Source: Microcaldota archaeon (lineage in GTDB: Archaea; Micrarchaeota; Micrarchaeia; Micrarchaeales; Micrarchaeaceae). Taken from it: 64,000 nucleotides of DNA. The first letter of the stretch is position 1. Each line of letters begins with the position of its first letter. Location of the stretch: assembly GCA_021799475.1 (NCBI GenBank), contig JAJZAJ010000002.1, positions 18,855 to 82,854 of the forward strand. The letters are read 5' to 3'. Below the pieces are notes generated by a model, which saw only the letters and a list, made by a program, of their open reading frames with translations, had not been told where the DNA came from and searched no databases. A program made the translations under genes and the position numbers. Shown one piece after another: positions 18,872 to 62,994 of the stretch.

Positions 18872-19801
18872 CTAGGCCCAGCCCGTAAATTTCTGCAATA
18901 ATCTGTTAGAGTAAGCCTCTAGCTTCTTCTTGAACGCATAAAAATCCTCATTATTGATGTTTTCCAACAGCATCTCGTCTTCACTTTTTGTATCATTAAG
19001 GGTTATGCCTGATTTTGCCTTTTCAGTCATATTGGCTCTGTATTTATCGTACATGTTCGCTGCGAATTTTATCTTTCTAACTGCCTCTTTTTCAACATCT
19101 TTTGGTTCCATCTTGAATTTCTTATGGAGCATGTAGAGGTCAAAGAAGTCCCTGGCCTTTATGCCTCTTCTTGTCAGTATCGCCCTTACCTTTTCTGCGG
19201 CTATCTCACGTTTGTCATAAACAACGAAGTGTAATGGTTTGATATACTCCTTGTACTCCGGATACAACAGTCCAATATCTTTCTTCGAGTCGATTACGAG
19301 TGTTTTCAATCTTTTTCTTGTTGTTTTGAAACACATCTCCTCTACAAAGTTTATCTGCACTTTTATGAAAGTCCTTCTCTTAAGCACGGCTGAATCATAC
19401 CATATCTTGTAAGTAACAAACCTATTGCTGCCTCCGAATTCCATATACTCCCTGTTGCCTTTCTGATTTTTGAAGTCAAATCCTCTTTTTGCCGCTATGC
19501 CAACGAAAACATCGGCTATTTCTGTTTCAAGCTTGGAAAGTGTGGCGCTGACCTTCTTTTTGCTTATTCCGGTTAATTTCTTCTGATGCAAATATGTAAA
19601 ATCAATGTCTTCTGAGAACCTAAAATAACCAGTATAAGCCTTTATCAGGCATGTTCCTCCCTTAAATGCGAAGTTTTTTGAGAAAAGCTGGTTTGAGGAT
19701 AGATCGCTGAGCAGCTGCTGCAAGATTAAGTCTTTTTCAATAAGATCGGTTCTTTTGTAATCTAATGCTTTGCCGATGTCATTTATCAGGTTTATATTCA
19801 C
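18872..19801 (-). CDS. AbiEii/AbiGii-type nucleotidyltransferase toxin
   Basis: 309 aa. The minimal nucleotidyltransferase signature is clear: FKGGTCLIKAYTGYFRFSEDIDFTYL (GG...T plus DxD) near residues 45-75. A later conserved REIAAEKVRAILTRRGIKARDFFDLYML block is characteristic of AbiEii. Such proteins inhibit growth by transferring nucleotides to tRNA acceptor ends or similar targets and protect against phage by abortive infection (known for the family). The start overlaps the stop of the upstream AbiEi-like gene by 4 bp (ATGA), fixing the pair as an operon. Confidence 0.9.
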   Translation of the reverse strand: MNINLINDIGKALDYKRTDLIEKDLILQQLLSDLSSNQLFSKNFAFKGGTCLIKAYTGYFRFSEDIDFTYLHQKKLTGISKKKVSATLSKLETEIADVFVGIAAKRGFDFKNQKGNREYMEFGGSNRFVTYKIWYDSAVLKRRTFIKVQINFVEEMCFKTTRKRLKTLVIDSKKDIGLLYPEYKEYIKPLHFVVYDKREIAAEKVRAILTRRGIKARDFFDLYMLHKKFKMEPKDVEKEAVRKIKFAANMYDKYRANMTEKAKSGITLNDTKSEDEMLLENINNEDFYAFKKKLEAYSNRLLQKFTGWA

Positions 19802-20433
19802 TTTAGCACCTTTTCTACCATGTTACTGACTGCCTTTGGATAATTCTTAGAGTATTTTCTTAAAGTCTCTTTTTTTACACCGCTGGCCCATTCGGCCACA
19901 TCTATTAATATCCTTTCCTCTGGGACTCCATTATATCTCCAGAAGTATATGAAATCCAGTATGGTCTTTTCACGATCAGAGTATCTTAAAGCTCCATTTT
20001 CTACAATTCCGAAACCAAGAAGTTTCTTAGATACCTTATTAAATTTAAATTTATGCCCATCTATCTCGATCGGCTTAGCCCTGAATATCTCAGAGCTGAT
20101 CACCTCATCTATCCCAAACTCCTCGTGGGTCATATTGTTGATTTTTAGCGCGCTATGAAGGCCAAAATACCAGTCTTTAACCCCTTTAAGCGCGATTCCC
20201 CTTGCAACTAACTCCATATAGCTGTAATGCTCATTGCCCAATTTGGTCTCATCAATACTCTTAAGGTAAAAAATACCCCTGAATATCCGTATAAGATAGT
20301 CGTTCCTTAGCAGATAATTAACAATGCTGTCATAATTAAATTTAAATATTTTAGCGTAAGTATGCAATTCCTTTTCAGTAACAAACTCTTTCTTCTCCAG
20401 ATAGAGTTTTTTTAACATTAGATTCATTGTCAT
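19798..20433 (-). CDS. AbiEi-type antitoxin/transcriptional repressor
   Basis: 211 aa. The N-terminal winged helix (residues ~15-65: KEFVTEKELHTYAKIF...YLIRIFRGIFYLKS) matches AbiEi architecture. The C-terminal part (ALRYSDREKTILDFIYFWRYNGVPEE) is the usual AbiEi antitoxin domain. It precedes and overlaps the toxin gene, and type IV toxin-antitoxin repressors typically bind their own promoter. The upstream 20434-20490 region has several TATATAAA-like and ATATGATAT palindromic elements that could serve as both promoter and operator. Confidence 0.85.
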   Translation of the reverse strand: MTMNLMLKKLYLEKKEFVTEKELHTYAKIFKFNYDSIVNYLLRNDYLIRIFRGIFYLKSIDETKLGNEHYSYMELVARGIALKGVKDWYFGLHSALKINNMTHEEFGIDEVISSEIFRAKPIEIDGHKFKFNKVSKKLLGFGIVENGALRYSDREKTILDFIYFWRYNGVPEERILIDVAEWASGVKKETLRKYSKNYPKAVSNMVEKVLK

Positions 20434-20539
20434 TCATATCACAATATGATATAAATAGACATATTAAGATATATAAAGCTATCTGCTTTATTTGTGTTTT
20501 ACAACAAATTTAAGGTTATATTAGAATGTCTGCCTCAAT

Positions 20540-23470
20540 TTAGTATTCTTTATCCCCTACATACTCTCTGAGTGTTCCTTTTACTTTAGATTTGTTAAGT
20601 TTTGCATATTCCAGTATTTCTTCTGTAGTGGCTCCCTGTTTACTCATACTATAGAATGTATCTTGTCCTAGTAAGACATAACTCCATTCACTGCTCATTC
20701 TGTCATCCACTTTCAATTCATTTACCTTATCCACCCAATCAATAGCCGCAAGTCTCTTGCTTCTAACATTCCGATTATCTAAATCTCTATCAGATTTTGT
20801 TTCTACAAGGTAAATTTTATTACCAATTTTTACAATAAAATCAGGATAATAATGAGCAAGTAGGCCATCTTCACGTATATAAACTATATTGGCAAATTCG
20901 TGGTAATACTCGTTTATTTTTATGAATGCCTTCACTTTTGAGTCCGCGTCAATAAATTGCATGAAAGCTTTTTCAAGGCCACCACCATTTGAGGGGTAAG
21001 ATATTTTTTCATAGATGGTCTTAGATAAAGTTAGTGCATACGTCTCTCTTACTTTAGTTTCACTAATTTCTGAGAAGTATCTCTTGATAATGGTTGCTTC
21101 GGTTATCTTCAAATCATTCTGCAGATCGTATACTGATTTTGCTATGTTTTTTACAATGTGTTGGGTTATTCCTTTTTGTGCTATTAACAAAATGCGCCAG
21201 TTGTTATCTTCTAATGGGTCAAAGCTCTTGCCGAAAAGTTTATGCCGTATATAGTCATCAGTTAATTTTGCAACTACTGCTTTATTTATTTGCATGACGG
21301 GGAACTTCTTTTGGGATTTCTTACCAACCCTCACGTGAATTACTGAAACCGCATCAACTATTTTTTCGATGAACGAATTATAGCTCTTTGCAGTAAATAA
21401 TGTAGGCGGAACAGTATATTCACCAAATTTCGTTTTTACTGTAAGCTCCTCACCGTAAAATACATCGCCCTTCATTTTGCTAATCAATGGCATTAGTTCT
21501 TCGATTGTTACTGGAGAGGGTTCTAGCTTTTCAACTGAAAGTTTGGCTTCTGCAAACTCTTCCTCCTTATCATGTATTATTATTATCCAGAAAAGGTCAT
21601 AATCTTTGTAATTCGATTTAAGCCCAACATTTATTATATCTCCAACTACTCTATCCTTCTTTGTTAGCTCGTCTACCTTACCTACCATTCCTTTCAGAAC
21701 TCTGTCGTAATACTCGATAAAGTTCGGATGCTCTATTATACTCAATATGTCCATGTAATTGTTAGGTTCTTCCTTTTTAACAAGAAGCCTTTCTCTGTTT
21801 TCTGCTTTAATTTCATCATATTGGTGCTCTCTCCACATGAGTCTTAAGCCCCTACCTATAAGCTGCTCCAAAAGAACATAAGAGGAACTGGACCGCAGCG
21901 GAACAATTACACATATATTATTTACATCGAATCCTTCTCTCAACATAAGAACTGAAACTATTATCTTTGGCTTGTCGTGTCTATCAATATTGAAAAGCTT
22001 CTGTTTTATCTCCTCCCATTCACCTTCGTTAACATCACCTTTCTTGTTAGAATGAATTTCCATTAACTCCTCATCCGAATAGCCTTCTTTCTTAAGAAAG
22101 TCTATCACATATGGTACGACAAATGTGTTCTCACAAACAATTAGCATTTTAGGGTACTTTGTCTTGTCTAGCCTTGTAAATCCGTCCTCCAGTATTTTTA
22201 ATTTCGTTATCCCCGCTCTTATCATTACTTTCTGTCCGTCAGAAAGACTGGTTACGCTTCTCCCTTCCCTTTCTGCCTTAAAATCTAAATCTTCCAATGG
22301 CACAGATGCAAATTCCTTTCGTTTATCAATAGCTACGGTCTTTACCAGCCCCTGCTTTATTGCCTCGACTAGCTCAAAGTTTATTATAATATGTGGGAAG
22401 TGATTTTGAACTCTGTTCTGGCCGCTACCGGTTACGATATATGGAGTTGCTGAGAAATCGATCTGCACAAATCTACTTTTTTTATTAGCGGATATCGTAT
22501 CTATAGCTTGTTGCCATTTTTTTTCAAGAACTTCATCAGAAACTTTCATTTCTCCTAAATGATGTGCTTCGTCATTGAAAATAAGAAGGTTTCCCAAATT
22601 TTTAAGATAATCCAGCTCCATTCCCCTCAGATATTGATTATCAAGTTCTTCAAGTGAATGTCCTGCAGAAGTACCTGGAGTTATAGGTAATAGCCGTTTG
22701 ACAGCTGCTTGTGGATTATCTAAAGGGGTATCTAACTCGCTATTATACTCTTCATCTTCAGCCAGTAAATGCCAGTTAGTTATGGCTATTAATCCATCGC
22801 CAGTCACCTTTTTGCCGATTTCCTCTTTCTGTGCAACACAGCTTTGAAGAAATCCGAATATTTCCGCCTTGTAAGATGATGGTAAAAACAATTTTTCGAA
22901 TCTCTTAAAGTCTGATTGCTCAAAATCTCTAGCACCATCTTCTTTCCTTTTACCAAGATAAGCATCAAGAAGTCTTTCATAAACTATAATACCTGGTGCT
23001 ACCAACAGAAAGTTTTTTGTGAATTTATCATTTGCAATCTCTTCATATTTCGAATTAAGGTACTGCCAAATAAGTAAAGCATCAAGCACCCATGTTTTCC
23101 CAGTGCCTGTGGCCATCTTTATGCAGTATTTTGGGTAATCATATTTCCCTTTCTTTAAATCGAGCACGTCCATCTCTTGTAACAGTTCAGGATAAATAGA
23201 CATATACATGTCCTTAACGCCACTGACTTTAAGGATTTCATGGACATATATTGTGTTTAGCACTGCCTGCCATTGGCCTTCGTGAAAATTAATGTCTCTT
23301 ACATCAGAGAAGTTACCTTTAGGATCCCACCACTTCAAGAGTTCTTTTGTTACTGGCGTTACCTTTTCAATAAAACTTCCATCGTTCCATGCTTTATTTA
23401 CTAATTCTGTAATTCGTGCAGCGAGCTTTAGAGGTATATCCCTTGTTCCAGATGATTTTACATTTACCAT
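20540..23470 (-). CDS. res: Type III restriction endonuclease subunit (Res)
   Basis: 976 aa. The N-terminal half is an SF2 helicase: Walker A MATGTGKTW (about residue 117), DEAH box FNDEAHHLGE, SATPYIV motif III, and LIGRGLR motif VI. The C-terminal PD-(D/E)xK nuclease is visible as PDFIVKIGNKIYLVETKSD (near residue 890). Res works with Mod to cleave unmodified DNA 25-27 bp from an asymmetric site. Its ATG overlaps the mod stop (TAATG), so the two are coupled. The gene appears intact, so the system is probably active. Confidence 0.95.
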   Translation of the reverse strand: MVNVKSSGTRDIPLKLAARITELVNKAWNDGSFIEKVTPVTKELLKWWDPKGNFSDVRDINFHEGQWQAVLNTIYVHEILKVSGVKDMYMSIYPELLQEMDVLDLKKGKYDYPKYCIKMATGTGKTWVLDALLIWQYLNSKYEEIANDKFTKNFLLVAPGIIVYERLLDAYLGKRKEDGARDFEQSDFKRFEKLFLPSSYKAEIFGFLQSCVAQKEEIGKKVTGDGLIAITNWHLLAEDEEYNSELDTPLDNPQAAVKRLLPITPGTSAGHSLEELDNQYLRGMELDYLKNLGNLLIFNDEAHHLGEMKVSDEVLEKKWQQAIDTISANKKSRFVQIDFSATPYIVTGSGQNRVQNHFPHIIINFELVEAIKQGLVKTVAIDKRKEFASVPLEDLDFKAEREGRSVTSLSDGQKVMIRAGITKLKILEDGFTRLDKTKYPKMLIVCENTFVVPYVIDFLKKEGYSDEELMEIHSNKKGDVNEGEWEEIKQKLFNIDRHDKPKIIVSVLMLREGFDVNNICVIVPLRSSSSYVLLEQLIGRGLRLMWREHQYDEIKAENRERLLVKKEEPNNYMDILSIIEHPNFIEYYDRVLKGMVGKVDELTKKDRVVGDIINVGLKSNYKDYDLFWIIIIHDKEEEFAEAKLSVEKLEPSPVTIEELMPLISKMKGDVFYGEELTVKTKFGEYTVPPTLFTAKSYNSFIEKIVDAVSVIHVRVGKKSQKKFPVMQINKAVVAKLTDDYIRHKLFGKSFDPLEDNNWRILLIAQKGITQHIVKNIAKSVYDLQNDLKITEATIIKRYFSEISETKVRETYALTLSKTIYEKISYPSNGGGLEKAFMQFIDADSKVKAFIKINEYYHEFANIVYIREDGLLAHYYPDFIVKIGNKIYLVETKSDRDLDNRNVRSKRLAAIDWVDKVNELKVDDRMSSEWSYVLLGQDTFYSMSKQGATTEEILEYAKLNKSKVKGTLREYVGDKEY

Positions 23471-25587
23471 TAGCTCACTTCTCTAATAGAATCGCTCTCA
23501 AAACCAAAAACATCAACAGCTCTTACGCATACTTTTCTCTTTCCTTTAATTTTTGGAACCAGAAGTTTGGTCTTTCTATCTACTCTTAATTTATCCTCAT
23601 GGTTCTCTCTGTAATCTTGCCATTTACTCTTGAAAATCTCTCCGTCATATTCAGGATCTATGCTCCAGTATTCTATAAGACTCAATGGATCCTTTTCTAT
23701 TACCTTTTCAAGCTTCTCCTTATCTTCTTTGTCTAACGGAAGTGCATCCGGAGACAAAAGTACATAGTTATCCAACTCTACCTCTAATATATCGTTTTCT
23801 TTATCCGATTCAATCTTCTTAATTGGTTTTATGGTCAAATATTGTAGGGATGAGAATCTGACTTTGCCGTCTTTTATGAGCTTTTCATAATCTGCCTTGT
23901 GTCTCAGTTTTTCTAAAATATCAGCAGGTATTACTAACACCTGCATCTTTTCAGATTCCATGTCCTTCTTAAAGTTTTCTATTATCCTGCTTATGTTAAG
24001 ATCGAAGTTCCAACCTAAAACAACTACCTTTTCCCACCCTCCCATGTAAGACGCTCTTAGTTCCTGGGCTTTTTTAAGTGTTGCGTTTCCCGTCATTCTT
24101 GTAGGTGAGTCTACATAAACAAGAGTTTTGCTCTGTTTAATATAACCAAGATTATTCGGAGTGCCTTCCTGCATTGGAAAAGGTAATGCGCCATATAGAT
24201 TTATTATGACATGCGCAAGGTCTCCTATGCTTTTGAATTGAGATCGTTCAAACTGTTCTTTCTGATAATCACCAATCGATTGGTACAAAAATGGATCTGC
24301 TTCTTGGTCGATGAGACTTTTCCTAGTAATCATACATGCGGGTTTACCTAAGTCGGATATAACCCACTGTCTTCCTAATCTTTCTGCTACTTCTGCAGTT
24401 GTTCCTGACCCAACAAAAAAGTCACCCACTATCGAATTTTTATTTGAAGACGTTTCAATAATCCGCTCGAGCAATGCTTCTGGTTTTTGAGTTGGATATT
24501 TTACCTTTTCTTTGGCTTGTGAATTTACAGGGTAAATATCATCCCACAGGGTACCTATCTTTACACCTTCCATATTCTCAAAATATTGTTTTTTTAACGG
24601 CATGGCGCCTGGCGAAGTCTGAACGATTAAACCTTGCGCCTCATAGTCCAGCATTTTTTCTTTGGTGGTTGCCCAAGTTTCCAAGAAACCTTTATACTCA
24701 TATTTTAAGTTCGGTCTGTTCTTATTCAAATTCAACAATGGAATCAATGCAAACCGCTTCCCAGCTGGAATTTTCTTCGATTCTCTAAACGATTTCATTT
24801 CTGACTTCGTAAATTTCAAATAACTTCCATCTTCCTGTTCAAAAAAACAATAGTATCTATCAACTTTATCCTCGTCATACTCTTTATATTGCATATTCCA
24901 TATAAAGTCATTCGATTTCGTGTAAAAAAATATATTGTTATGTTCCAAACCGTAATTCTTGAAACCTGTGCTTTTTGCTCTAGTCTGCTTCCAAATAATC
25001 TCGTTCTGAAATTTATCCTTTCCAAATATTTCGTCCATAATGACCTTTACGTAGTGTCCTACCCGCGAGTCTATGTGTACATAAATAGAGCCTCGCTCGC
25101 TTAGAAGCTCCCTCATCATTATTAGTCTTGGGACTATCATTTCGAGGTATGATTTTGTTCCGTCTTTCCATGTGTCAGAATATGCAAATTGTTCTATAAC
25201 CGTAGGTTTTTGCTCTATGTCAATAGTGGGCAGGTGTATTTTCATCCTATAATCTGTTTTGCTATCATACGGCGGGTCTATATATATTAGATCGACCATA
25301 CCGCGCATTGATGGTAATTCGGTTGTTGGGTCCCCTGCCAAGAGCGCCTGTATTGTTAGTAAGTTATCCCCGTAAATTAGCCTATTCAAAAGACCATTAA
25401 CCATCGATTTCTTTACAACTTGACCAGTAAACGCAGCTAGGCCGCCTTTAGCTTTTGTCGGAAGCACTAGCTCATTAGTTTGCAGTGTTACTCTTTGTGA
25501 TTTCGACAATCCATCAAGCAAGCGCTGCGCTTCCTTTTTCCCACTTTCGACTATTTTAGGAAGTTCTTCTATCAACGAATCCCTCAT
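23470..25587 (-). CDS. mod: Type III DNA methyltransferase subunit (Mod)
   Basis: 705 aa N6-adenine methyltransferase. Motif IV DLIYIDPPYDSKTDY (about residue 95) comes before the SAM-binding motif I (VGDFFVGSGTTAEVAERLG, about residue 385), i.e. the beta-class order. The region between is the target recognition domain. A TATA-like TAATTATAAG near 25600 is close enough for a leaderless mRNA. It provides sequence specificity and protects the host. Codon use is AT-rich compared with flanking housekeeping genes, consistent with transfer. Confidence 0.95.
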   Translation of the reverse strand: MRDSLIEELPKIVESGKKEAQRLLDGLSKSQRVTLQTNELVLPTKAKGGLAAFTGQVVKKSMVNGLLNRLIYGDNLLTIQALLAGDPTTELPSMRGMVDLIYIDPPYDSKTDYRMKIHLPTIDIEQKPTVIEQFAYSDTWKDGTKSYLEMIVPRLIMMRELLSERGSIYVHIDSRVGHYVKVIMDEIFGKDKFQNEIIWKQTRAKSTGFKNYGLEHNNIFFYTKSNDFIWNMQYKEYDEDKVDRYYCFFEQEDGSYLKFTKSEMKSFRESKKIPAGKRFALIPLLNLNKNRPNLKYEYKGFLETWATTKEKMLDYEAQGLIVQTSPGAMPLKKQYFENMEGVKIGTLWDDIYPVNSQAKEKVKYPTQKPEALLERIIETSSNKNSIVGDFFVGSGTTAEVAERLGRQWVISDLGKPACMITRKSLIDQEADPFLYQSIGDYQKEQFERSQFKSIGDLAHVIINLYGALPFPMQEGTPNNLGYIKQSKTLVYVDSPTRMTGNATLKKAQELRASYMGGWEKVVVLGWNFDLNISRIIENFKKDMESEKMQVLVIPADILEKLRHKADYEKLIKDGKVRFSSLQYLTIKPIKKIESDKENDILEVELDNYVLLSPDALPLDKEDKEKLEKVIEKDPLSLIEYWSIDPEYDGEIFKSKWQDYRENHEDKLRVDRKTKLLVPKIKGKRKVCVRAVDVFGFESDSIREVS

Positions 25588-25668
25588 CTAGCTACCCTCT
25601 TATAATTATGACACTCTAAGTAAGCCTTCTTTAGCAACCTAACCTTAAAAAGCTTGCACATTTGACTG

Positions 25669-27195
25669 TTACATATAGAATCTATAATGTGGCTGCAATG
25701 GTATGTCCTTGCTTGCCTCTGATAATATTTCACCCACTTTTTCTGAAAATTCCAAAGTTATCGGCAGATATGTTGAAAAGGCAGTAGTATTCCAATTAAG
25801 TTTTGTCAGGCCTATTATTTCATCACATATTTCTGATACTTCAGAATCGCCTATATGTGTGATAAGTAGAGGCTGTGGTATGCTATGACCTGGATACGTT
25901 CTTATTCTTGGAGTATAACCAGATGTGAAAAGTATGTGTTCTTTATCAGTAAGATGTACCAAAGTTCCTCTCAAAACAGGATACGATCCCATTCTCATGA
26001 ATCGAATACCTTTTCTTTTGCTAATTGTAACAAAATCATGCTTAACCATGCCTATTGCAGTATTCAGCCCCTTAATTTCATCATTACTAAATAGTGTTGA
26101 TTTATGTATCACAACACGAGCAGGCGTACGATGTGCTTTCTCAGTATATTTCTCTATTGCTTCCTTTAGTAATGTCTCTGCTTGTTTTTCAGACAGATGT
26201 GGTTCTTTCGTAATCGTATCTACATATACCTCGCTACCGCGTAATACTAAACCCTGTCCATCGTGTGTGAATACTTGTGCCATCGAGGTTTGAATATCTA
26301 TGTTGAAAGCTAGCTTATCTCTGTAGAAAGATATTCCGACATAACACGTATCGTCCCTTAATTTAGCAAGTCGCCAAGGCTTACCATTTGCCTTGTAGAA
26401 CAAAGCGGTTGAGAAGTTCCAAGCAAATGACGCTGGTTCTTGTTTCATTCCTCCCTTTTCCTTATTGTAGTTCAATACTGCATCCATAGTAGATTCTCTG
26501 AGGATTTGGATAGGTATGGCCGGCTTTATGCCCATGTTTTTGCCTTTTAGAGCATTTCTAAAATCGTAACCTTTGGGTTTTTCCGCTAATTTTTCACTTA
26601 CGGCTGCTCCCCAGTCAGATAAAAACCTTTGCTTGTTCTTCCATCCTGCTATCTCGCGCTCCAATTCTGTAGGTTTTGGAGTTTTTGCACCTCTGGTAAA
26701 ACGAGATATTCCGCAATGTTCCTCAATCTCTTTTGGCAAACAGCAGAGGATGGCACTTGGCGGGTTGTCTTCACTTGCAATATTACGGATTTTTGTAAGA
26801 TAAAGTTCTACTGCTGCACCTATTCTTTCGTTAGTATTAGTAATTTTTAGTATGCTGTCTATTTCAGACTGGAGAATAGTATCTTGCCATGTGCCAGATA
26901 TGTCTATATCACATCCAAATTTCGTGTCCTTAGATATACCCGGGAAGTCCGGATATAGCCACTTATTAGCACCAGCACTTACTATTGGCTCTTTTATCAT
27001 AGATAATATTGCTTTGGTCTTTTCTAGTGTAGATTTATCACCTATAATCCCTAATCCTATTTTGTCTAAAGGCTTTGTCTCAGATTCATGCGTATATGGC
27101 CCAAAATACTTAAGTCCTATTCGTGGATCTTTCTCTTCGCGAAGTCCTCCGAAGATTAGGTTCCGTTCCATAATATAGTCGGTCTTAAACTCCAT
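25669..27195 (-). CDS. Short prokaryotic Argonaute (MID-PIWI), catalytically inactive
   Basis: About 508 aa. The N-terminal NLIFGG...DPRIGLKYFGPY is the usual opening of short pAgo MID domains, and the C-terminus ends in HYRFYM as PIWI proteins do. The first PIWI strand reads CYVGISFYRD, so the first catalytic Asp of the DEDX tetrad is absent. The VVIHKSTLF strand also lacks its acidic residue, so slicing is not expected. PAZ and N domains are missing. The start lies inside the upstream partner gene (11-bp overlap; ATG 27204 is an alternative). Known short pAgos use guides to trigger a partner effector and abort infection. Confidence 0.85.
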   Translation of the reverse strand: MEFKTDYIMERNLIFGGLREEKDPRIGLKYFGPYTHESETKPLDKIGLGIIGDKSTLEKTKAILSMIKEPIVSAGANKWLYPDFPGISKDTKFGCDIDISGTWQDTILQSEIDSILKITNTNERIGAAVELYLTKIRNIASEDNPPSAILCCLPKEIEEHCGISRFTRGAKTPKPTELEREIAGWKNKQRFLSDWGAAVSEKLAEKPKGYDFRNALKGKNMGIKPAIPIQILRESTMDAVLNYNKEKGGMKQEPASFAWNFSTALFYKANGKPWRLAKLRDDTCYVGISFYRDKLAFNIDIQTSMAQVFTHDGQGLVLRGSEVYVDTITKEPHLSEKQAETLLKEAIEKYTEKAHRTPARVVIHKSTLFSNDEIKGLNTAIGMVKHDFVTISKRKGIRFMRMGSYPVLRGTLVHLTDKEHILFTSGYTPRIRTYPGHSIPQPLLITHIGDSEVSEICDEIIGLTKLNWNTTAFSTYLPITLEFSEKVGEILSEASKDIPLQPHYRFYM

Positions 27196-28624
27196 TATTA
27201 TCATCAATGCTTATCGCTAATTCCTCTGGTTCCTCTTCAATTTCAAGTTTGAACTCTGATGAAGGAATGTCAAATAGAATGCCATAAGCCATTTTAGCCG
27301 CTACAGGAGTGGGGTCTACCTCAATGTAGTCGTTTACATTGATACTCGCTCCTCCGCCTAATTTGTATATCCAGAACAAAATTGTATTTAGGTAGTTGCC
27401 GTTGTATTTGTCATAAGAAAGTCTCGTTATAACAGTGCCTTCTTCTGCTCCTGCAATTACACGTTTCCCATCTTCAGTGAGAATAAATGTCGGTTTGATT
27501 CTTAGGAATATTCTTTCGCCCAATCTGATAAAATCTGCAAAGAAAGCAGGGTGGCAGTAAATATCCCTATTAAGCTGAGCAGTCCACATTTTCGCCGCTA
27601 CCTGCCTTGTCGCTTTTCCATACCTAGCTTGCCACGATTCTTCTCTTCTTTCAGTATCAGTTGAATAGAAAAATTTGTGCCTGTCTAAACTATAATAGAG
27701 GTGAATATTTGAAATTGCATGATGTCTTAATTCTCTATTCAGCAAATCGATTATTATTCTTGCCTTATCAGCATCCTTTAGCCACGAATCTAGAGATTCT
27801 TTCTTAATTGTTCTACTATCGACAAGGCCAGAGTATAGGTTTCCTGAATCTTGTAGGTTTTCAAATGTTACTATATTGCCGTTCCACTCTCTAAATTTGA
27901 AAACCCACTCGGGAAAAACATTGTTCTGTTTAAGGAAGGCTTTCTTTGAGTCTTTATCTCCCAACTTATCCGTTCCAAAATACACGCATTGCGGTAGTTT
28001 TTTAAGTTCAAACAAGTTGCTATATATCTCCTCATTTATTTCGTCAGGATCACCGCTCAGTAAAGAGATTCTATAGTTTTCGATTTCCAGCCTCTTTTTC
28101 ATTATTTGCTCTTCTTGCTTAGACGGATGAATGCTTTGTGTTCCTCTCCTATAGAAAACCTCATCGACTTTAAAGACGATCCTTTCTTTATTGCCTTTGT
28201 TGTATTTGCCTTCTTTCTTAGGTGTCAGGATCTTGTGTGAAGGAGGAATATAAATATAAGCAAACCTTAAGCCTTGGGCATCTTTCACTTCTCTATAAAG
28301 CAATTCTATAGGCTCATCTACATAGGAATTAAATTTCTCTTGTAGGCTAGCTTGGTCTACATTATATTCGTCTGGTAAACCCACAGGTGAATATTGACTA
28401 TTCGTTATTTCTTTCCAACCTAGGAGTAACCATCCAACGCCATAGTTACTAAATGCAAAAATATCCTTTGCTATTTCTGGAAAAGCAGAGTCTGAGATAT
28501 CCATTGTCCATTTGAAATCAAGAAACGGAGCCTCACTTTTCCTCTGTTTAAGGAAATCTATTACATAATCACTAAGCGGCTCAGACTCAACTTCGTTTAT
28601 TACTACCTGGGCTTCATGTCGCAT
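27185..28624 (-). CDS. AlbA_2/Schlafen-like putative effector partner of the short Argonaute
   Basis: 479 aa. Residues ~20-150 resemble the AlbA_2 (Schlafen/COG2865) domain: FLKQRKSEAPFLDFKWTMD, IAKDIFAFSNYGVGWLLLGW, RFAYIYIPPS, then VFYRRGTQS. The remaining 330 residues are unassigned; size and position match the APAZ part of known pAgo partners, which I cannot confirm by eye. The C-terminal block contains YCHPAFFADF and FILTEDGKRVI. It is the first gene of the operon and overlaps pAgo. Literature on short pAgos mentions RecG/DHS-like partners, possibly this domain (inference). Confidence 0.75.
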   Translation of the reverse strand: MRHEAQVVINEVESEPLSDYVIDFLKQRKSEAPFLDFKWTMDISDSAFPEIAKDIFAFSNYGVGWLLLGWKEITNSQYSPVGLPDEYNVDQASLQEKFNSYVDEPIELLYREVKDAQGLRFAYIYIPPSHKILTPKKEGKYNKGNKERIVFKVDEVFYRRGTQSIHPSKQEEQIMKKRLEIENYRISLLSGDPDEINEEIYSNLFELKKLPQCVYFGTDKLGDKDSKKAFLKQNNVFPEWVFKFREWNGNIVTFENLQDSGNLYSGLVDSRTIKKESLDSWLKDADKARIIIDLLNRELRHHAISNIHLYYSLDRHKFFYSTDTERREESWQARYGKATRQVAAKMWTAQLNRDIYCHPAFFADFIRLGERIFLRIKPTFILTEDGKRVIAGAEEGTVITRLSYDKYNGNYLNTILFWIYKLGGGASINVNDYIEVDPTPVAAKMAYGILFDIPSSEFKLEIEEEPEELAISIDDNNGV

Positions 28625-30989: not shown

Positions 30990-31970
30990 TCACCTCCCGG
31001 CCCCATACGGATTGAAAGGTTTATCCCGTATGAGCATGAAATAAATAATTCTTGCAAGTCTCCTCGAACATGCAACAACAGCCTTCTTCGGTCCTATTCG
31101 TTTTGAAAGTTCGTAATACTTTTCTGTTATTATCGAATCTTTGCAGTGCATAACGTGCATCCATGTACATTCGATCAGAATTGTGCGCAGCGTTACATTT
31201 CCTGATTTAAGGTGTCCCTTCCATTCAACCGATCCTGATTGATGTGTCGATGGACACAGGCCGGCGTAAGAGAAGAGATGAAATTCTGTCGGAAATCTAT
31301 GAACATTCCCTATCTGACTTGCGATAGTGAGTGCAGATGTGTAACCTACACCTGGAATAGTGTCTATTAATTTCGCGTAATGACTCTGCATTGCCTTTTC
31401 TTTTACTGCGCCATTGAAGTCCGAAATTCTTTCGGTATGTTCTTTGTATAGTTTTGCAAGTTCCCTCAATGACAGATGTTCCGACATCTCTAGTTCATTG
31501 ACCGATTTCTTTGTCAACGAACCCAATTCTACTCCGTATTTGTGCACCTCGTACCTTATCCTGTTCTTTGTCGCTGTCCTTTGCCTCACAAAGAAGTCTC
31601 TTGCGCTACAGAGGTTCCTGTCCTCCCTTATCTCCTTCGGCGGTAGATAAGAGGTCGGAAGGTAATCCGCATTGTACGCGTCCAACAATTTGTGTGCATC
31701 ATTCTTATCGGTCTTGTTCGGCGACTTTGCAATTAACCTCATCGCAGCTGGATGCGCAACAACTATTTTACCGCTGCGGCGTTCCAGTAGGTCCACAACG
31801 GGGTAAAGATTATTTCCCGCCTCTATTATGAAGGTGTTTCCTTCACATGCAGGTATTATCGAATCAAAACCTTCCTGTGTTGTATCCACATACCCCTCGT
31901 CTTCTACCATGTCGCCTTTCTGTACGACGACATAACTCCTTCTCTTTCCGATATCTATTGCTATCTCCAT
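30990..31970 (-). CDS. IS110-family DEDD transposase
   Basis: 326 aa from ATG 31970. The N-terminal RuvC-like DEDD domain contains IAIDIGK (first Asp), FIIEAGNN (Glu) and KTDKNDAHKL (two Asp). A coiled linker follows, then the Transposase_20 domain with helix-hairpin-helix DTIPGVGYTSALTIASQIG and the Ser-bearing SGSVEWKGHLKSGNVTLRTILIE. These enzymes recombine DNA under direction of a structured non-coding RNA from the element. No frameshift or internal stop is seen, so the transposase could be functional. Confidence 0.95.
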   Translation of the reverse strand: MEIAIDIGKRRSYVVVQKGDMVEDEGYVDTTQEGFDSIIPACEGNTFIIEAGNNLYPVVDLLERRSGKIVVAHPAAMRLIAKSPNKTDKNDAHKLLDAYNADYLPTSYLPPKEIREDRNLCSARDFFVRQRTATKNRIRYEVHKYGVELGSLTKKSVNELEMSEHLSLRELAKLYKEHTERISDFNGAVKEKAMQSHYAKLIDTIPGVGYTSALTIASQIGNVHRFPTEFHLFSYAGLCPSTHQSGSVEWKGHLKSGNVTLRTILIECTWMHVMHCKDSIITEKYYELSKRIGPKKAVVACSRRLARIIYFMLIRDKPFNPYGAGR

Positions 31971-31994
31971 ATACACACCTTATCGTTATTCGGA

Positions 31995-32241: not shown

Positions 32242-32895
32242 ATGGTAGCACCAGCGGCTAAGATGGCAATGGCTCCACAGGCATCAGAGACGAGATTCGG
32301 CGACTTTAAGCCGATCGTAGGTTCAACGGGAGCGACGATATACGCCTTACAGGCGGGGGCAAATCATACTAAGTCTATGGCGCTTCTGTCAGAAGCGGGA
32401 TTGAGACCTTTCAAGGAGAAAGAGATAATTTTGCTACTGATGAAGGACGAGGTTCTAAAAACTGAGTTAAAAAACAAGTGGTTCTACATCGATGGTGTAG
32501 GCAGCGAAAAAAGCGGCCTGTTTACACTGAACGAGGAAGGCAAGCTTGTAAAAGTGGACTCACTTCCAAGAGCAGCAAGGAAGAAGGTTTCACCTGAAAA
32601 TATCGTTCGTGCATATCCGGGACAGCAGCCGCTGTCGTTCCTCGTCGATTCGGACGACTACGCCGCCTACTATGGCAGGCGTTTCGACCTGCTTGCCTAC
32701 TTCGGGCCTCATGTTGTCGCTCCGGTGGTGGTTGGCGTGCCTGCCGACCGCGAAGCGGTCGCGCCGAAAACAAGCGCACAGCCTAATGTTCCAGCTCACC
32801 TACTTAGAAGAGCAAAGGATCAGTTCGTAGAGCTGAGAAAGCACCAGAAGCCTGAAACGATTGATGCAATCGAAGAGGTTCTGGGCAGCCTTTAA
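32242..32895 (+). CDS. DGR target (variable) protein
   Basis: 217 aa. It contains the 102-bp variable repeat (codons ~130-163). Compared with the template repeat at 33134, 17 bases differ, all at template A positions, changing residues 134, 136, 139, 140, 143, 149, 151, 153, 154, 155, 158 and 162 (mostly Asn codons in the template). The segment before VR (WFYIDGVGSEKSGLFTLNEEG) and after (HVVAPVVVGVPADR) suggests a C-type-lectin-like ligand-binding fold, the usual DGR target, though I cannot prove it. Unusually, VR is 54 residues from the C-terminus; a helical tail (RAKDQFVELRKH) follows. No signal peptide or membrane segment is visible, so the protein may act inside the cell. Confidence 0.9.
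   Translation: MVAPAAKMAMAPQASETRFGDFKPIVGSTGATIYALQAGANHTKSMALLSEAGLRPFKEKEIILLLMKDEVLKTELKNKWFYIDGVGSEKSGLFTLNEEGKLVKVDSLPRAARKKVSPENIVRAYPGQQPLSFLVDSDDYAAYYGRRFDLLAYFGPHVVAPVVVGVPADREAVAPKTSAQPNVPAHLLRRAKDQFVELRKHQKPETIDAIEEVLGSL
32628..32729 (+). repeat. DGR variable repeat (VR)
   Basis: 102 bp aligned without gaps to TR 33134-33235 (offset 506). Of 27 adenines in TR, 17 are substituted in VR; all 75 non-adenine positions are identical. Adenine-only divergence is the hallmark of mutagenic retrohoming. Confidence 0.96.
32745..32761 (+). other. Hairpin just downstream of VR
   Basis: CGACCGC, GAA loop, GCGGTCG: a 7-bp perfect stem 15 bp after VR. Cruciform-forming hairpins with short G/A-rich loops next to VR are known to enhance DGR target recognition. 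The match in position, stem length and loop is good. Confidence 0.75.
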
Positions 32896-33133
32896 ATATT
32901 ATATTGAAGGCAACTCCTTTTACCTGGGTTTGCTTGAGGGGTAAAACCCTCCAAATTTGCGGGCATAAGCCCGCGGGATGCAAACCGAGGACCACACATC
33001 CGTCTATAGCGCCGGTAGTTCACGAACATACCGGACATGAAATTCAGCAGCGACACTGAGTAGGCATTAGCTGAAACCGTGAAGCTGCGGTGTTGCCATG
33101 AAAATGGCGTTTTAGTAGATGGGTTACATTATC
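32896..33133 (+). ncRNA. Structured non-coding RNA between target gene and template repeat
   Basis: No credible reading frame in 238 nt, but dense secondary structure. An outer stem GGTTTGC (32927-32933) with GCAAACC (32980-32986) encloses two hairpins: GAGGG/CCCTC at 32936-32951 and GCGGGC-ATAA-GCCCGC at 32959-32974. A 9-bp hairpin follows at 33012-33034, and GCCAT-GAAA-ATGGC at 33095-33108. This is probably the 5' part of the template RNA and occupies the place where many DGRs encode the Avd accessory protein. Confidence 0.6.
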
Positions 33134-33235
33134 GCCGCTGTCGTTCAACGTCAATTCGGACAACAACGCCGCCAACTATGGCAGGCGTTTCAACCTGAAT
33201 GCCAACAACGAGCCTCATAATGTCGCTCCAATGGT
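33134..33235 (+). repeat. DGR template repeat (TR)
   Basis: 102 bp carrying AAC/AAT codons wherever VR differs (27 adenines). It is upstream of and in the same orientation as the reverse transcriptase gene (33 bp before its ATG), the standard DGR order. Homology with VR ends sharply on both sides. Confidence 0.96.
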
Positions 33236-33268
33236 TCTCATTTGCATCCTGGGTTTCATGGTAATGAC

Positions 33269-34376
33269 ATGGAAACCTACAGAAACCTGTATCCTGAACT
33301 GTGTTCTTACGATAATCTCGTACTTGCTTGGAAAAGGGCAAGGAAGGGCAAGACGAAGAAGGACTACGTCATAAAATTCGAGTCCGATCTTGAGAATAAC
33401 CTACAGCAGCTTAAGCACGAGCTTGAGACTTTAGTGTATCTTCCGGCCCCCTTGACGACTTTTATAGTGAGGGATCCCAAAACAAGAAGGATAAGCGCAT
33501 CGCATTTCAGGGACAGGGTTGTCCATCATGCTCTTTGCAACATCATAGCCCCTATTTTTGAGAAGGATTTCATACATGATTCGTTTGCCAACCAGAAAGG
33601 CAAGGGCACTCACATGGCCATAAAAAGGATTGAGAAGTTCATGAGGGTTGTACGCGTTGCCACACCAGTCGGGGGGGGGGGCGCAAAAATTGCTGTTTGA
33701 AAAACAGGAAACCCTTGGATATGCGCTTAAGGCGGACATTAAGCATTATTTCGACACGGTGGATCATGCAGTATTGCTCGGCATAATCGAAAGGAAAATA
33801 AAAGACGAAAATACCATCTGGCTGATAAAAACCATTCTCAATAACCACAAAGTCGACGTTTCAGGTAAGGGGATGCCAATCGGCAATCTAACATCGCAGT
33901 TCTTTGCAAATGTCTACCTTAATGAGCTCGACCAATTTGTAAAGCACATTTTGAAGGCCAAATATTATCTAAGATATGTCGACGATTTCACCATTTTTCA
34001 CAGGGACAAGGCAATTCTTGGGAAGTGGAAAAGAGAGATAGAAGGCTTTCTGAACGGGGAGCTCAAAGTGGAGCTACATCCCCAAAAGTCAAGAATAATC
34101 GAGCTTAAAAGGGGCATAACGATGCTTGGTTTCAGGGTATTCTACCATCACAGGCTTCTCAAGAAGAGCAATGCAAGACGGATATGGAAACGGCTAGAGC
34201 GCTTTAAGCAAAAGTACGACAGCGGTGAGCTCACCGCAGAAGAAGCGGCCCGTAGCATGGAGGGATGGATTGCCTATGCCAAGTTTGCAAACACATATAA
34301 CTTTAGGCAGAGCGTTAACTCCAGATTCAGTGATCTGTTTAGCCCAGCCCGGACAGGGCGAAGAACCAGTGCCTGA
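33269..34376 (+). CDS. DGR reverse transcriptase, interrupted by +1 base in a G11 tract
   Basis: Copies the TR transcript with A-specific errors. Domain content: fingers (LVLAWKRARKGKTKKD, RRISASHFRDRVVHHALC, FIHDSFANQKGKGTH), palm LKADIKHYFDTVDH, the DGR signature IGNLTSQFFANVYLN and catalytic YVDD in LRYVDDFTIFH, then thumb (GITMLGFRVFYHH). The 5' part runs in one frame to a stop at about 33700; the palm onward lies in another. The frames join at 11 consecutive G at 33671-33681. With 10 G the protein is continuous (~368 aa). As written, YVDD is not translated from the ATG at 33269. Slippage-controlled phase variation or a sequencing error are the options. Confidence 0.9.
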
Positions 34377-61698: not shown

Positions 61699-62856
61699 TT
61701 ATCTCTGCTTTGATTTTACGGGACCGTTTGTGTTTTTCAGGACTTCCGACATTCCTCTCAGTTCAGCATATTCTGAAAGATCCGCTCCCCTGAGCATCTT
61801 CAGGAATTTGTCTTCTTTCGGGCAGATGAGTCTTATGACATCATCCAGTGTCTCTACTCTTTCGTTCATGAAACATGAAGCATATTTCACGCGCAGCAGT
61901 ATCCTGGTGTAAAATGAACAGCTCAGGAGAAATGCCTGCCCGTTAATCACCCTATTTATGATATCCATTCTGCTTTCCCCAAAATGCCGCTCATAATAGC
62001 TGAATTTCCTTTCTAGATTTTCTTCGCTGTAGCTGATTATTTGAGAGAACTTGAGTATCAGTTCTATGAACTTCTTCTTGTCAAGTTCTAGATACTTCCT
62101 TCTTCCTTCGAGATTTTCTTCGCTATGACCGACTACTGGAGGATACTTCAGTATCAGTTCTATGAACCTTTTCTTGTCAAGTTCTAGATACTTCCTTCTT
62201 CCTTCGAGATTTTCTTCGCTATGACCGACTACTGGAGGATACTTCAGTATCAGTTCTATGAACTTCTTCTTGTCAAGTTCTAGATACTTCCTTCTTCCTT
62301 CGAGATTCTCTTCGCTGAGGCCGACTATTGGGGGGAATTTGAGTATCAGTTCTATGAACTTCTTCTTGTCAAGTTCTAGATACTTCCTTCTTCCTTCGAG
62401 ATTCTCTTCGCTGTAGCCGACTATTTGAGGATACTTCAGTATCAGTTCTATGAACTTCTTCTTGTCAAGTTCTAGATACTTCCTTCTTCCTTCGAGATTC
62501 TCTTCGCTGAGATTGACTATTGGGGGGAATTTGAGTATCAGTTCTATGAACTTCTTCTTGTCGAGTTCGAGATACTTCCTTCTTCCTTCGAGATTCTCTT
62601 CGCTGAGGCTGACTATTTGAGGAAACTCATTTATCAATTTGACTATTTTACTTATGCCAAGATATTCAGATAGGTATAAAATGAACCTTGAAACGGTCTG
62701 TGCTGTGGGTCTCACTTCTTTGAGCCTGACTTTATCGACCCCTAGGCTAACGAGCAGTTCCCTTGCTGCCGCATATCTAGGTTCATCGTCATATGTTGAC
62801 TTTTCATCTATTTGCAAAGCTAAGTCCAATACGGCATCATGGTCGATTTGATCCAT
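61699..62856 (-). CDS. mTERF-like protein of near-identical 32-residue repeats
   Basis: 385 aa from ATG 62856. After an 80-residue helical N-domain come six tandem 32-residue units (SEENLEGRRKYLELDKKKFI then ELILK[FY]P[PQ][IV]V[NGS][LYH]) at 62625-62050, plus a degenerate seventh. The pattern FPxIVxxSEENLExRxxYLEL resembles eukaryotic mTERF helical repeats, which wrap nucleic acid. Units are almost identical even in DNA; variation is confined to a few positions (VSL, VNL, VGY, VGL, VGH, VGH). This suggests recent expansion and a modular binding surface. The C-terminal ~110 residues are unique and helical. Confidence 0.8.
   Translation of the reverse strand: MDQIDHDAVLDLALQIDEKSTYDDEPRYAAARELLVSLGVDKVRLKEVRPTAQTVSRFILYLSEYLGISKIVKLINEFPQIVSLSEENLEGRRKYLELDKKKFIELILKFPPIVNLSEENLEGRRKYLELDKKKFIELILKYPQIVGYSEENLEGRRKYLELDKKKFIELILKFPPIVGLSEENLEGRRKYLELDKKKFIELILKYPPVVGHSEENLEGRRKYLELDKKRFIELILKYPPVVGHSEENLEGRRKYLELDKKKFIELILKFSQIISYSEENLERKFSYYERHFGESRMDIINRVINGQAFLLSCSFYTRILLRVKYASCFMNERVETLDDVIRLICPKEDKFLKMLRGADLSEYAELRGMSEVLKNTNGPVKSKQR
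62050..62625 (-). repeat. Six tandem 96-bp coding repeats
   Basis: 96-bp units encode the 32-residue repeats. Long runs such as CTTCTTGTCAAGTTCTAGAT recur unchanged, so the array is prone to recombination-driven copy-number change. Mis-assembly of the copy number is possible. Confidence 0.9.
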
Positions 62857-62863
62857 GTTTAAT

Positions 62864-62878
62864 GCGGCTGTAAGCCGC
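62864..62878. promoter_or_regulatory. Start-proximal hairpin of the repeat-protein gene
   Basis: GCGGCT, GTA, AGCCGC: a perfect 6-bp stem 7 bp before ATG 62856 on the message side. It could hide the start codon region. A TATA-like CTTAAATATC (minus strand) lies at about 62934-62943. Confidence 0.45.
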
Positions 62879-62994
62879 TGCAATAAAGCCTCTGTTTCCG
62901 TGATTCAATCACTGTAATGACAGAGTTCTACCAGATATTTAAGACTGTCGAAAGGCAATATAACAAGGAGAGAGTCTGTTATTTCGTGTTCTTC

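What the first reader, a model, noticed from the sequence alone, without database searches (positions are those of the whole stretch)
32242..34376. Complete diversity-generating retroelement in an archaeal integrated element
VR 32628-32729 and TR 33134-33235 align over 102 bp without gaps. There are 17 differences, every one at a TR adenine (17 of 27 adenines changed, 0 of 75 other positions). TR sits directly upstream of a reverse transcriptase with the DGR signature IGNLTSQ and YVDD. This is direct evidence of adenine-specific mutagenic retrohoming. Twelve residues of the target protein are diversified. Archaeal DGRs are known, including in DPANN, but this one has an intracellular-looking target, VR 54 residues from the C-terminus, and no Avd gene.
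Basis: partly seen in the sequence, partly recalled or inferred. Interest (0 to 1): 0.93.

Follow-up and report, generated by a model that had tools for sequence, protein, structure and literature searches.

The report
Archaeal protein diversifier with slip switch
A tiny archaeon carries a retroelement whose template matches two genes except, almost only, where the template has the letter A; the gene for its copying enzyme is out of frame at a run of eleven Gs, many relatives carry a repeat at the same spot in differing lengths, and this likely works as a random on/off switch for targeted mutation.

Summary
The VR/TR pair is real: 17 differences over 102 bp, all at template adenines. It is a diversity-generating retroelement (DGR) of a Micrarchaeota-type archaeon. 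Of 34 Micrarchaeota RT loci, 25 carry a simple repeat in this loop (poly-G, poly-C or (AG)n): 22 out of frame, 3 in frame; the 9 without a repeat are in frame. Out-of-frame loci have VRs as adenine-pure as in-frame ones and RT halves under purifying selection, so the RTs look recently active. Near-identical full-length and split proteins exist. Other DPANN RTs have frame-breaking repeats at a second loop (15 loci) and a third (one). Best reading: a phase-variable DGR. Also found: a second VR gene about 254 kb away, Rfam RT-16 RNA just 5' of TR, a GAA-loop hairpin after VR, and a likely C-type-lectin-like target. Switching is inferred, not observed; slippage during expression is the main rival.

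The parts
32242..32895 (+). Target gene, 217 aa, predicted C-type-lectin-like fold; variable stretch at residues 129-163
   Evidence: ORF; model mean pLDDT 80.9; top fold matches are C-type-lectin domains; no Pfam, PHROGs or PADLOC family
32628..32729 (+). VR1, variable repeat
   Evidence: 17 differences to TR, all at TR adenines
32745..32761 (+). 7-bp perfect hairpin with GAA loop, 15 nt after VR1, inside the target gene
   Evidence: resembles the GRA-loop hairpins of Nanoarchaeota DGR targets (PMC4372165, passages)
32923..33132 (+). RT-16 RNA (RF03019), likely the structured 5' part of the TR transcript
   Evidence: 78.9 bits, gathering score 50; also in 28 of 33 relative RT loci
33134..33235 (+). 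TR, template repeat
   Evidence: matches VR1 and the unlinked VR2 over the same 102 bp
33269..33700 (+). RT gene, N-terminal half (an in-frame TTG lies at 33242)
   Evidence: phrog_1423 reverse transcriptase, E 3e-46
33671..33681 (+). G11 tract at which the RT reading frame breaks
   Evidence: the only run of 8 or more G on either strand of the 814-kb genome; a repeat at the same place in 24 of 33 relative loci
33648..34376 (+). RT gene, C-terminal half ORF with PIGNLTSQ and YVDD, in another frame than the N half
   Evidence: phrog_1423 E 2.5e-77, RVT_1 E 7.5e-16

Best explanation
This is a diversity-generating retroelement whose reverse-transcriptase gene is split into two reading frames at an 11-G tract, and the tract likely acts as a phase-variation switch in which repeat slippage during replication would toggle the RT between full-length (on) and truncated (off). 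When on, the RT would copy the TR RNA, misread adenines, and the cDNA would overwrite VR1 and the unlinked VR2, re-randomising the predicted binding face of two related C-type-lectin-like proteins; when off, current variants would be kept and selected. Shown from sequence: the frame split, the tract and its recurrence at one loop, the adenine-biased VR changes, in-frame and out-of-frame alleles among relatives, differing tract lengths in near-identical RT copies, and purifying selection on both halves of out-of-frame RTs. Inferred: that tract length changes reversibly within one lineage, that the split form is inactive, and that the switching controls retrohoming.
For: Same-loop repeat in 25 of 34 loci in three unit types (18 poly-G, 5 (AG)n, 2 poly-C); 22 out of frame (11 of each offset), 3 in frame; 9 of 9 without repeat in frame (Fisher p 4.2e-6). 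Only G run of 8 or more in the own genome; in G011, G039 and G089 the genome-wide counts equal what the RT tract alone would give. 12 out-of-frame loci: 157 of 268 A but 2 of 710 other TR positions changed; 10 pairs at in-frame loci: 120 of 238 and 5 of 507. Median pN/pS 0.22 and 0.27 (halves of 21 out-of-frame RTs) against 0.30 and 0.34 (11 in-frame). Tract length differs where little else does: G123/G125, G8 against G10; G226 scaffold shows G9 and G11; two RTs of G177, (AG)10 in frame and (AG)9 out. P0051 (361 aa) and P0072 (210 aa) 99.5% identical. The loop is the only stretch of three or more residues under pLDDT 50 in an in-frame relative's model. Frame-breaking repeats at a second loop (15 loci) and a third (L223) in other DPANN RTs.
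Against: No switching was observed; these are assemblies, and the length of an 11-G run may be wrong by a unit or more, so the state of this very genome is uncertain. Only 3 of 25 repeat-bearing loci are in frame, fewer than the third expected of a free switch (binomial p 0.015; 0.026 without L268 and L278), which fits a mostly-off population but also suits slippage during expression. Some genomes of the class have many G runs elsewhere, and G167 has 46 matches to G8 but no repeat in its RT. The G123/G125 pair is a truncated RT. P0020/P0021 (100% identical, short and full) may only reflect start choice or a contig edge.
Confidence: 0.68

Rival explanations
1. Slippage acts during expression, not on DNA: RNA polymerase (or the ribosome) slips on the repeat, so every cell makes a small share of full-length RT whatever the tract length, holding the mutator at a constant low level.
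For: Most repeat-bearing RTs are out of frame (22 of 25) yet their VRs are adenine-pure; both offsets would be served by slippage in either direction.
Against: In-frame alleles and tract-length differences between close copies exist. The repeat is replaced by (AG)n, (CT)n or poly-C in relatives; how well these slip in transcription is not known here.
Confidence: 0.2
2. Programmed ribosomal frameshifting at a conserved slip site joins the two halves.
For: The break recurs at one place.
Against: 11 loci have one offset and 11 the other, 3 are in frame, and repeat units differ; a fixed-direction shift cannot serve them all.
Confidence: 0.03
3. The RT is a decaying pseudogene.
For: It is out of frame here, and some relatives are truly damaged (G123, G125, G088).
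Against: Both halves stay under purifying selection in out-of-frame loci, breaks sit at the repeat, and VRs show almost no non-adenine change.
Confidence: 0.03
4. The two halves are made separately and work as a two-subunit RT.
For: 77 of the 120 best database relatives of the C half are C-half-only proteins.
Against: The starts given to the short proteins lie at varied places, and full-length forms exist in the same family (39 of 120).
Confidence: 0.03
5. Sequencing or assembly error in the homopolymer makes an intact RT look split.
For: Tract length in single assemblies may be off, and in G224 the contig ends inside the G run.
Against: The repeat itself recurs at one loop in 25 of 34 loci and in three unit types, and would by random error be in frame about a third of the time; databases of proteins show the same split.
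Confidence: 0.03

Closest known systems
Nanoarchaeota and DPANN diversity-generating retroelements (Paul et al. 2015, PMC4372165, passages seen; Paul et al. 2017 not held)
   Same: RT, TR, VR with adenine-specific differences, hairpin with a GRA trinucleotide loop inside the target gene after VR, several targets per genome suspected.
   Different: The passages seen tell of no frame-breaking repeat in the RT ('frameshift' and 'homopolymer' occur 0 times in that text). Here VR2 lies about 254 kb away.
Bordetella phage BPP-1 DGR (RT of PDB 8ub7)
   Different: No Avd-like ORF seen between target and RT; RT-16 RNA stands 5' of TR; RT frame broken at a repeat. That 8ub7 is the BPP-1 RT is recalled.
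Simple-sequence-repeat contingency loci of bacteria (for example poly-G genes of Neisseria and Campylobacter; listings)
   Same: Homopolymer or dinucleotide repeat inside a coding region, lengths differing between relatives, in-frame and out-of-frame alleles.
   Different: Host is an archaeon and the switched gene is a targeted mutator, not a surface or modification gene; switching not measured.
RT-16 RNA (Rfam RF03019)
   Same: Above gathering score in the window and in 28 of 33 relative loci.
   Different: Here it ends one base before TR, which makes it likely the 5' part of a DGR template transcript; no paper holding 'RT-16 RNA' is in the library.

Membership tests
Diversity-generating retroelement | RT of the DGR type | tested here: met
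   phrog_1423 for both halves; GNLTSQ and YVDD; intact relative closest to DGR RT 8ub7 by sequence and by model
Diversity-generating retroelement | TR/VR near-repeat differing at TR adenines | tested here: met
   17 of 27 A, 0 of 75 other; 22 pairs in the family, 277 of 506 against 7 of 1217
Diversity-generating retroelement | VR inside a protein gene with a fold that tolerates variation (C-type lectin in many) | tested here: met
Diversity-generating retroelement | Hairpin shortly after VR | tested here: met
   7-bp stem, GAA loop, 15 nt after VR1; in 9 of 20 relative targets a stem of 6 or more bp with a 3-nt loop G(A/G/T)A, and in one a 4-nt loop
Diversity-generating retroelement | IMH / IMH* motif at the 3' ends of VR and TR | tested here: inconclusive
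   VR and TR part company after ...CCxxTGGT, but no IMH model was tested
Diversity-generating retroelement | One-piece, translatable RT | tested here: not met
   Out of frame at G11 in this assembly; in frame in 12 of 34 relatives' loci
Diversity-generating retroelement | Retrohoming shown by experiment | not testable with these tools
   Sequence only
Phase-variable (contingency) locus | Simple repeat in the coding region that sets the frame | tested here: met
   G11 at 33671-33681; 25 of 34 loci with a repeat, 22 out of frame
Phase-variable (contingency) locus | Repeat length differs between close relatives, both states seen | tested here: met
   G123/G125, G226, G177, P0051/P0072
Phase-variable (contingency) locus | Repeat stands out from the genome's background | tested here: met
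   Only G8 or longer run in the own genome; background is higher in some genomes of the class
Phase-variable (contingency) locus | Reversible switching in one population with an effect on phenotype | not testable with these tools
   Needs reads or culture
Programmed ribosomal frameshift gene | Conserved slip site with one fixed direction | tested here: not met
   11 loci of each offset, 3 in frame, three repeat types

The most novel reading that the evidence does not exclude
DPANN archaea run a two-tier mutation system: slippage of a simple repeat randomly switches on a reverse transcriptase that then hypermutates only chosen codons in several genes. This gate arose repeatedly, in at least three different loops of the RT, so that lineages alternate between exploring and holding binding variants.
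Probability: 0.62. Interest if true: 0.93.

Novelty: new variant of a known kind. Interest (0 to 1): 0.86.

Why it matters
How cells keep a targeted mutator from scrambling good variants is open: Roux et al. 2021 (PMC8144416, section 11 read) leave undecided whether calmer cellular DGRs reflect stronger control of RT activity, and a 2026 study (PMC12875486, passages) calls the regulation of DGR activity in the wild an exciting frontier. A repeat that sets the RT frame is a concrete, sequence-readable candidate answer for a group of uncultivated archaea. It predicts that existing metagenome reads hold both states, so it can be tested now. It would put a simple-repeat switch on a mutator in archaea rather than on a surface gene, and it warns that gene callers split such RTs, so DGR surveys may miss or misjudge them.

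Tried and rejected
Rejected or not supported: (1) Integrated element with att sites: no repeat of the tRNA-Glu end was found, so boundaries are unknown. (2) Fixed-direction programmed frameshift: offsets are mixed. (3) Pseudogene: low pN/pS and clean VRs. (4) Presence in known viruses: the 21-nt flank of the tract has no exact hit in viral contigs; the 72 viral-contig relatives of the C half are at most 53% identical in their best segment, and none has a run of 7 or more G in the RT, though one (L055) has C8. (5) Target families: none in Pfam, PHROGs or PADLOC.

Limits of the counts: the 80 genome-contig loci are the best of 575 and favour one-piece RTs, so the 72 distinct non-Micrarchaeota controls speak only about that loop. 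The 20 regions were chosen mostly because the search showed split RTs: with L298, 21 loci could be read, 16 with shifted halves (15 with a repeat; L343 has an inserted stretch and no repeat) and 5 unsplit with none. The first TR/VR finder stops at non-A mismatches and flatters purity; the counts used come from one search, which scores all mismatches alike, on the diagonals that one search had found, so pairs with many non-A differences could not enter. 13 of 34 loci gave no TR/VR pair in the fetched stretch. L278's frame is ambiguous because of NN, and L268 is damaged further; the tests were repeated without both (Fisher p 7.8e-6, in-frame binomial 0.026). L268 and L288 were left out of pN/pS; synonymous differences there are near saturation (pS 0.84-0.88). 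In the RT tree 19 of 39 inner branches are open, so its fewest changes of repeat presence (9) and type (12) are rough. A third remote VR-like stretch in G089 (L294) differs from TR at 18 of 28 A but also at 15 non-A positions and was not counted as a clean VR.

Papers: ten searches, of which I saw listings with the starts of abstracts; none of the listed items told of a phase-variable DGR RT. Passages of six papers were seen and one section read. Paul 2017 is not held.

Full report
Observation. The window holds VR 32628-32729 and TR 33134-33235, 102 bp without gaps, 17 differences, every one at a template adenine (17 of 27 A, 0 of 75 others; Fisher p about 9e-13). The 217-aa target (32242-32895) carries the VR 54 residues before its end; 12 residues differ from the TR-encoded peptide. 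TR ends 33 nt before the RT ATG at 33269.

The RT does not read through. Its N-terminal part (33269-33700) and its C-terminal part (ORF 33648-34376, with PIGNLTSQ and YVDD) are in different frames, and the break falls at an 11-G run, 33671-33681. A scan of the 814-kb genome, both strands, finds no other run of eight or more G.

The genome and its relatives. The window lies in a 3-contig, 95% complete genome. Named records that hold the same sequences as some of its phylum relatives are titled Micrarchaeota (identical stretches listed). RT relatives were found in 16 of 100 nearest genomes, 20 of 164 of the order and 41 of 301 of the phylum; these sets overlap and include the own genome in the last two. 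I fetched 33 RT loci and, with the window, compared 34; two of them come from one genome (G177).

The repeat is the conserved thing. In 25 of the 34 loci a simple repeat lies in the same loop, between the region after the SFANQ motif and the strand with LKADIxHYFD: 18 poly-G (8 to 11), 5 (AG)n and 2 poly-C. In 22 of these the halves are out of frame, 11 with one offset and 11 with the other; in 3 they are in frame. The 9 loci without a repeat are all in frame (Fisher p 4.2e-6). Among full-length relatives the place encodes Gly, Arg-Glu or Pro runs, so the repeat rather than the peptide is kept. In the model of one in-frame relative (P0086, mean pLDDT 85.1) residues 133-142 at this loop are the only stretch of three or more residues under pLDDT 50, a place likely to tolerate changes of length. 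Against a free switch: 3 of 25 in frame is fewer than a third (binomial p 0.015).

Background. In 24 of 27 genomes scanned there is some run of eight G. In G011, G039 and G089 the counts equal what the RT tract alone would give, and G005, G007 and G148, whose RTs have no repeat, have none. Genomes of the wider class have more, and G167 has 46 matches but no repeat in its RT, so rarity of G runs does not hold everywhere.

Out of frame but recently active. At 12 out-of-frame loci with a readable TR/VR pair, 157 of 268 template adenines but 2 of 710 other positions differ; for 10 pairs at in-frame loci the numbers are 120 of 238 and 5 of 507. Median pN/pS is 0.22 (N half) and 0.27 (C half) among 21 out-of-frame RTs, against 0.30 and 0.34 among 11 in-frame ones. 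In G089, whose RT is out of frame in its assembly, two further VRs on a contig other than the RT's differ from TR at 18 and 21 of 28 adenines and at no other position; a third stretch has 15 non-adenine differences as well.

Tract length changes and both states exist. G123 and G125 share about 700 nt of a truncated RT with one substitution and one 1-nt indel, yet G8 against G10, while their flanks are about 80% identical. In G226 a scaffold shows the junction twice around an NN, once with G9 and once with G11, as expected if two lengths kept the contigs from merging (my reading). G177 holds two RTs, (AG)10 in frame and (AG)9 out of frame. In the protein database the best 120 of 1598 relatives of the C half fall into 77 short proteins (196-254 aa), 4 middle ones (272-300) and 39 long ones (313-414); P0051 (361 aa) and P0072 (210 aa) are 99.5% identical over 210 residues. 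In G224 a contig ends inside the G run.

Beyond Micrarchaeota. The 72 RT relatives in viral contigs each match in one frame, with no run of seven or more G in the RT (one has C8). 72 distinct loci from other genomes have neither shift nor repeat at this loop. One of them (L223, record titled Nanoarchaeota) breaks at a G12 after YVDD. A search of 279 genomes of that genome's phylum found RTs in 84. Among 21 loci read, chosen largely because they were split, 16 have shifted halves and 15 of these carry G9 to G13, G27, (GA)n or (CT)n at another loop, just before the MPLGNLTSQ motif; 5 unsplit ones carry none. So the device appears at three loops of the RT, most simply by convergence.

How it most likely works. 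Repeat slippage during replication would add or drop units and so put the RT in or out of frame far more often than point mutation would. In-frame cells would make RT, copy TR and rewrite VR1 and VR2 at adenine codons; out-of-frame cells would hold their variants for selection. That 22 of 25 repeat-bearing loci are out of frame fits a population mostly holding. The rival I rate next is slippage in transcription or translation, giving a steady low level of RT; DNA alone cannot exclude it. Decay, a two-subunit RT and sequencing error fit less well.

Novelty. It is a DGR by its defining parts, in a variant that I did not meet in the listings or passages I could see (Paul 2017 not held).

Noticed in passing
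window 18872-28624: Defence-gene cluster upstream of the DGR: AbiEi/AbiEii pair, type III restriction-modification pair, and a class I prokaryotic Argonaute with a partner matching Argonaute-associated proteins.
   Followed up: partly
window 30990-31976: IS110-family transposase gene just upstream of the target gene.
   Followed up: no
window 32923-33132: RT-16 RNA abuts TR here and occurs in 28 of 33 relative DGR loci, which likely tells what this Rfam family is: part of the template transcript.
   Followed up: partly
window 61699-62883: 394-aa ORF made of near-identical 36-residue repeats (KYLELDKKKFIELILK...), seen in the ORF list.
   Followed up: no
L003 1501-1602 (VR2): The two non-adenine differences from TR lie two positions apart (0-based 78 and 80); cause unknown.
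   Followed up: no
L268 and L269 (G123, G125): About 700 nt of truncated RT nearly identical between two genomes whose flanking DNA is about 80% identical: recent transfer or conversion of the DGR patch.
   Followed up: partly
L291 (G089:C80): A TR-like copy with the flank typical of TR on a contig other than the RT's, 10 of 28 A and 16 of 74 other positions different from the RT-linked TR: maybe a remnant of a second DGR.
   Followed up: no
G089 and G010: Matches to the target family are many in some genomes: 14 in G089 and 8 in the half-complete G010, so one RT may serve several genes.
   Followed up: partly
L277 (G167) target ORF: This relative's VR protein looks like a secreted, membrane-anchored protein (hydrophobic N-terminus and C-terminal hydrophobic stretch by eye), unlike the window's target.
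   Followed up: no
L342 (G351:C5): A 27-G run breaks the RT frame before motif B, the longest tract seen.
   Followed up: no
L345 (G301:C67): In one of several RTs of G301 the second-loop tract is interrupted (GGGGGAGGGG) and the halves are in one frame: possibly a switch that has been locked.
   Followed up: no
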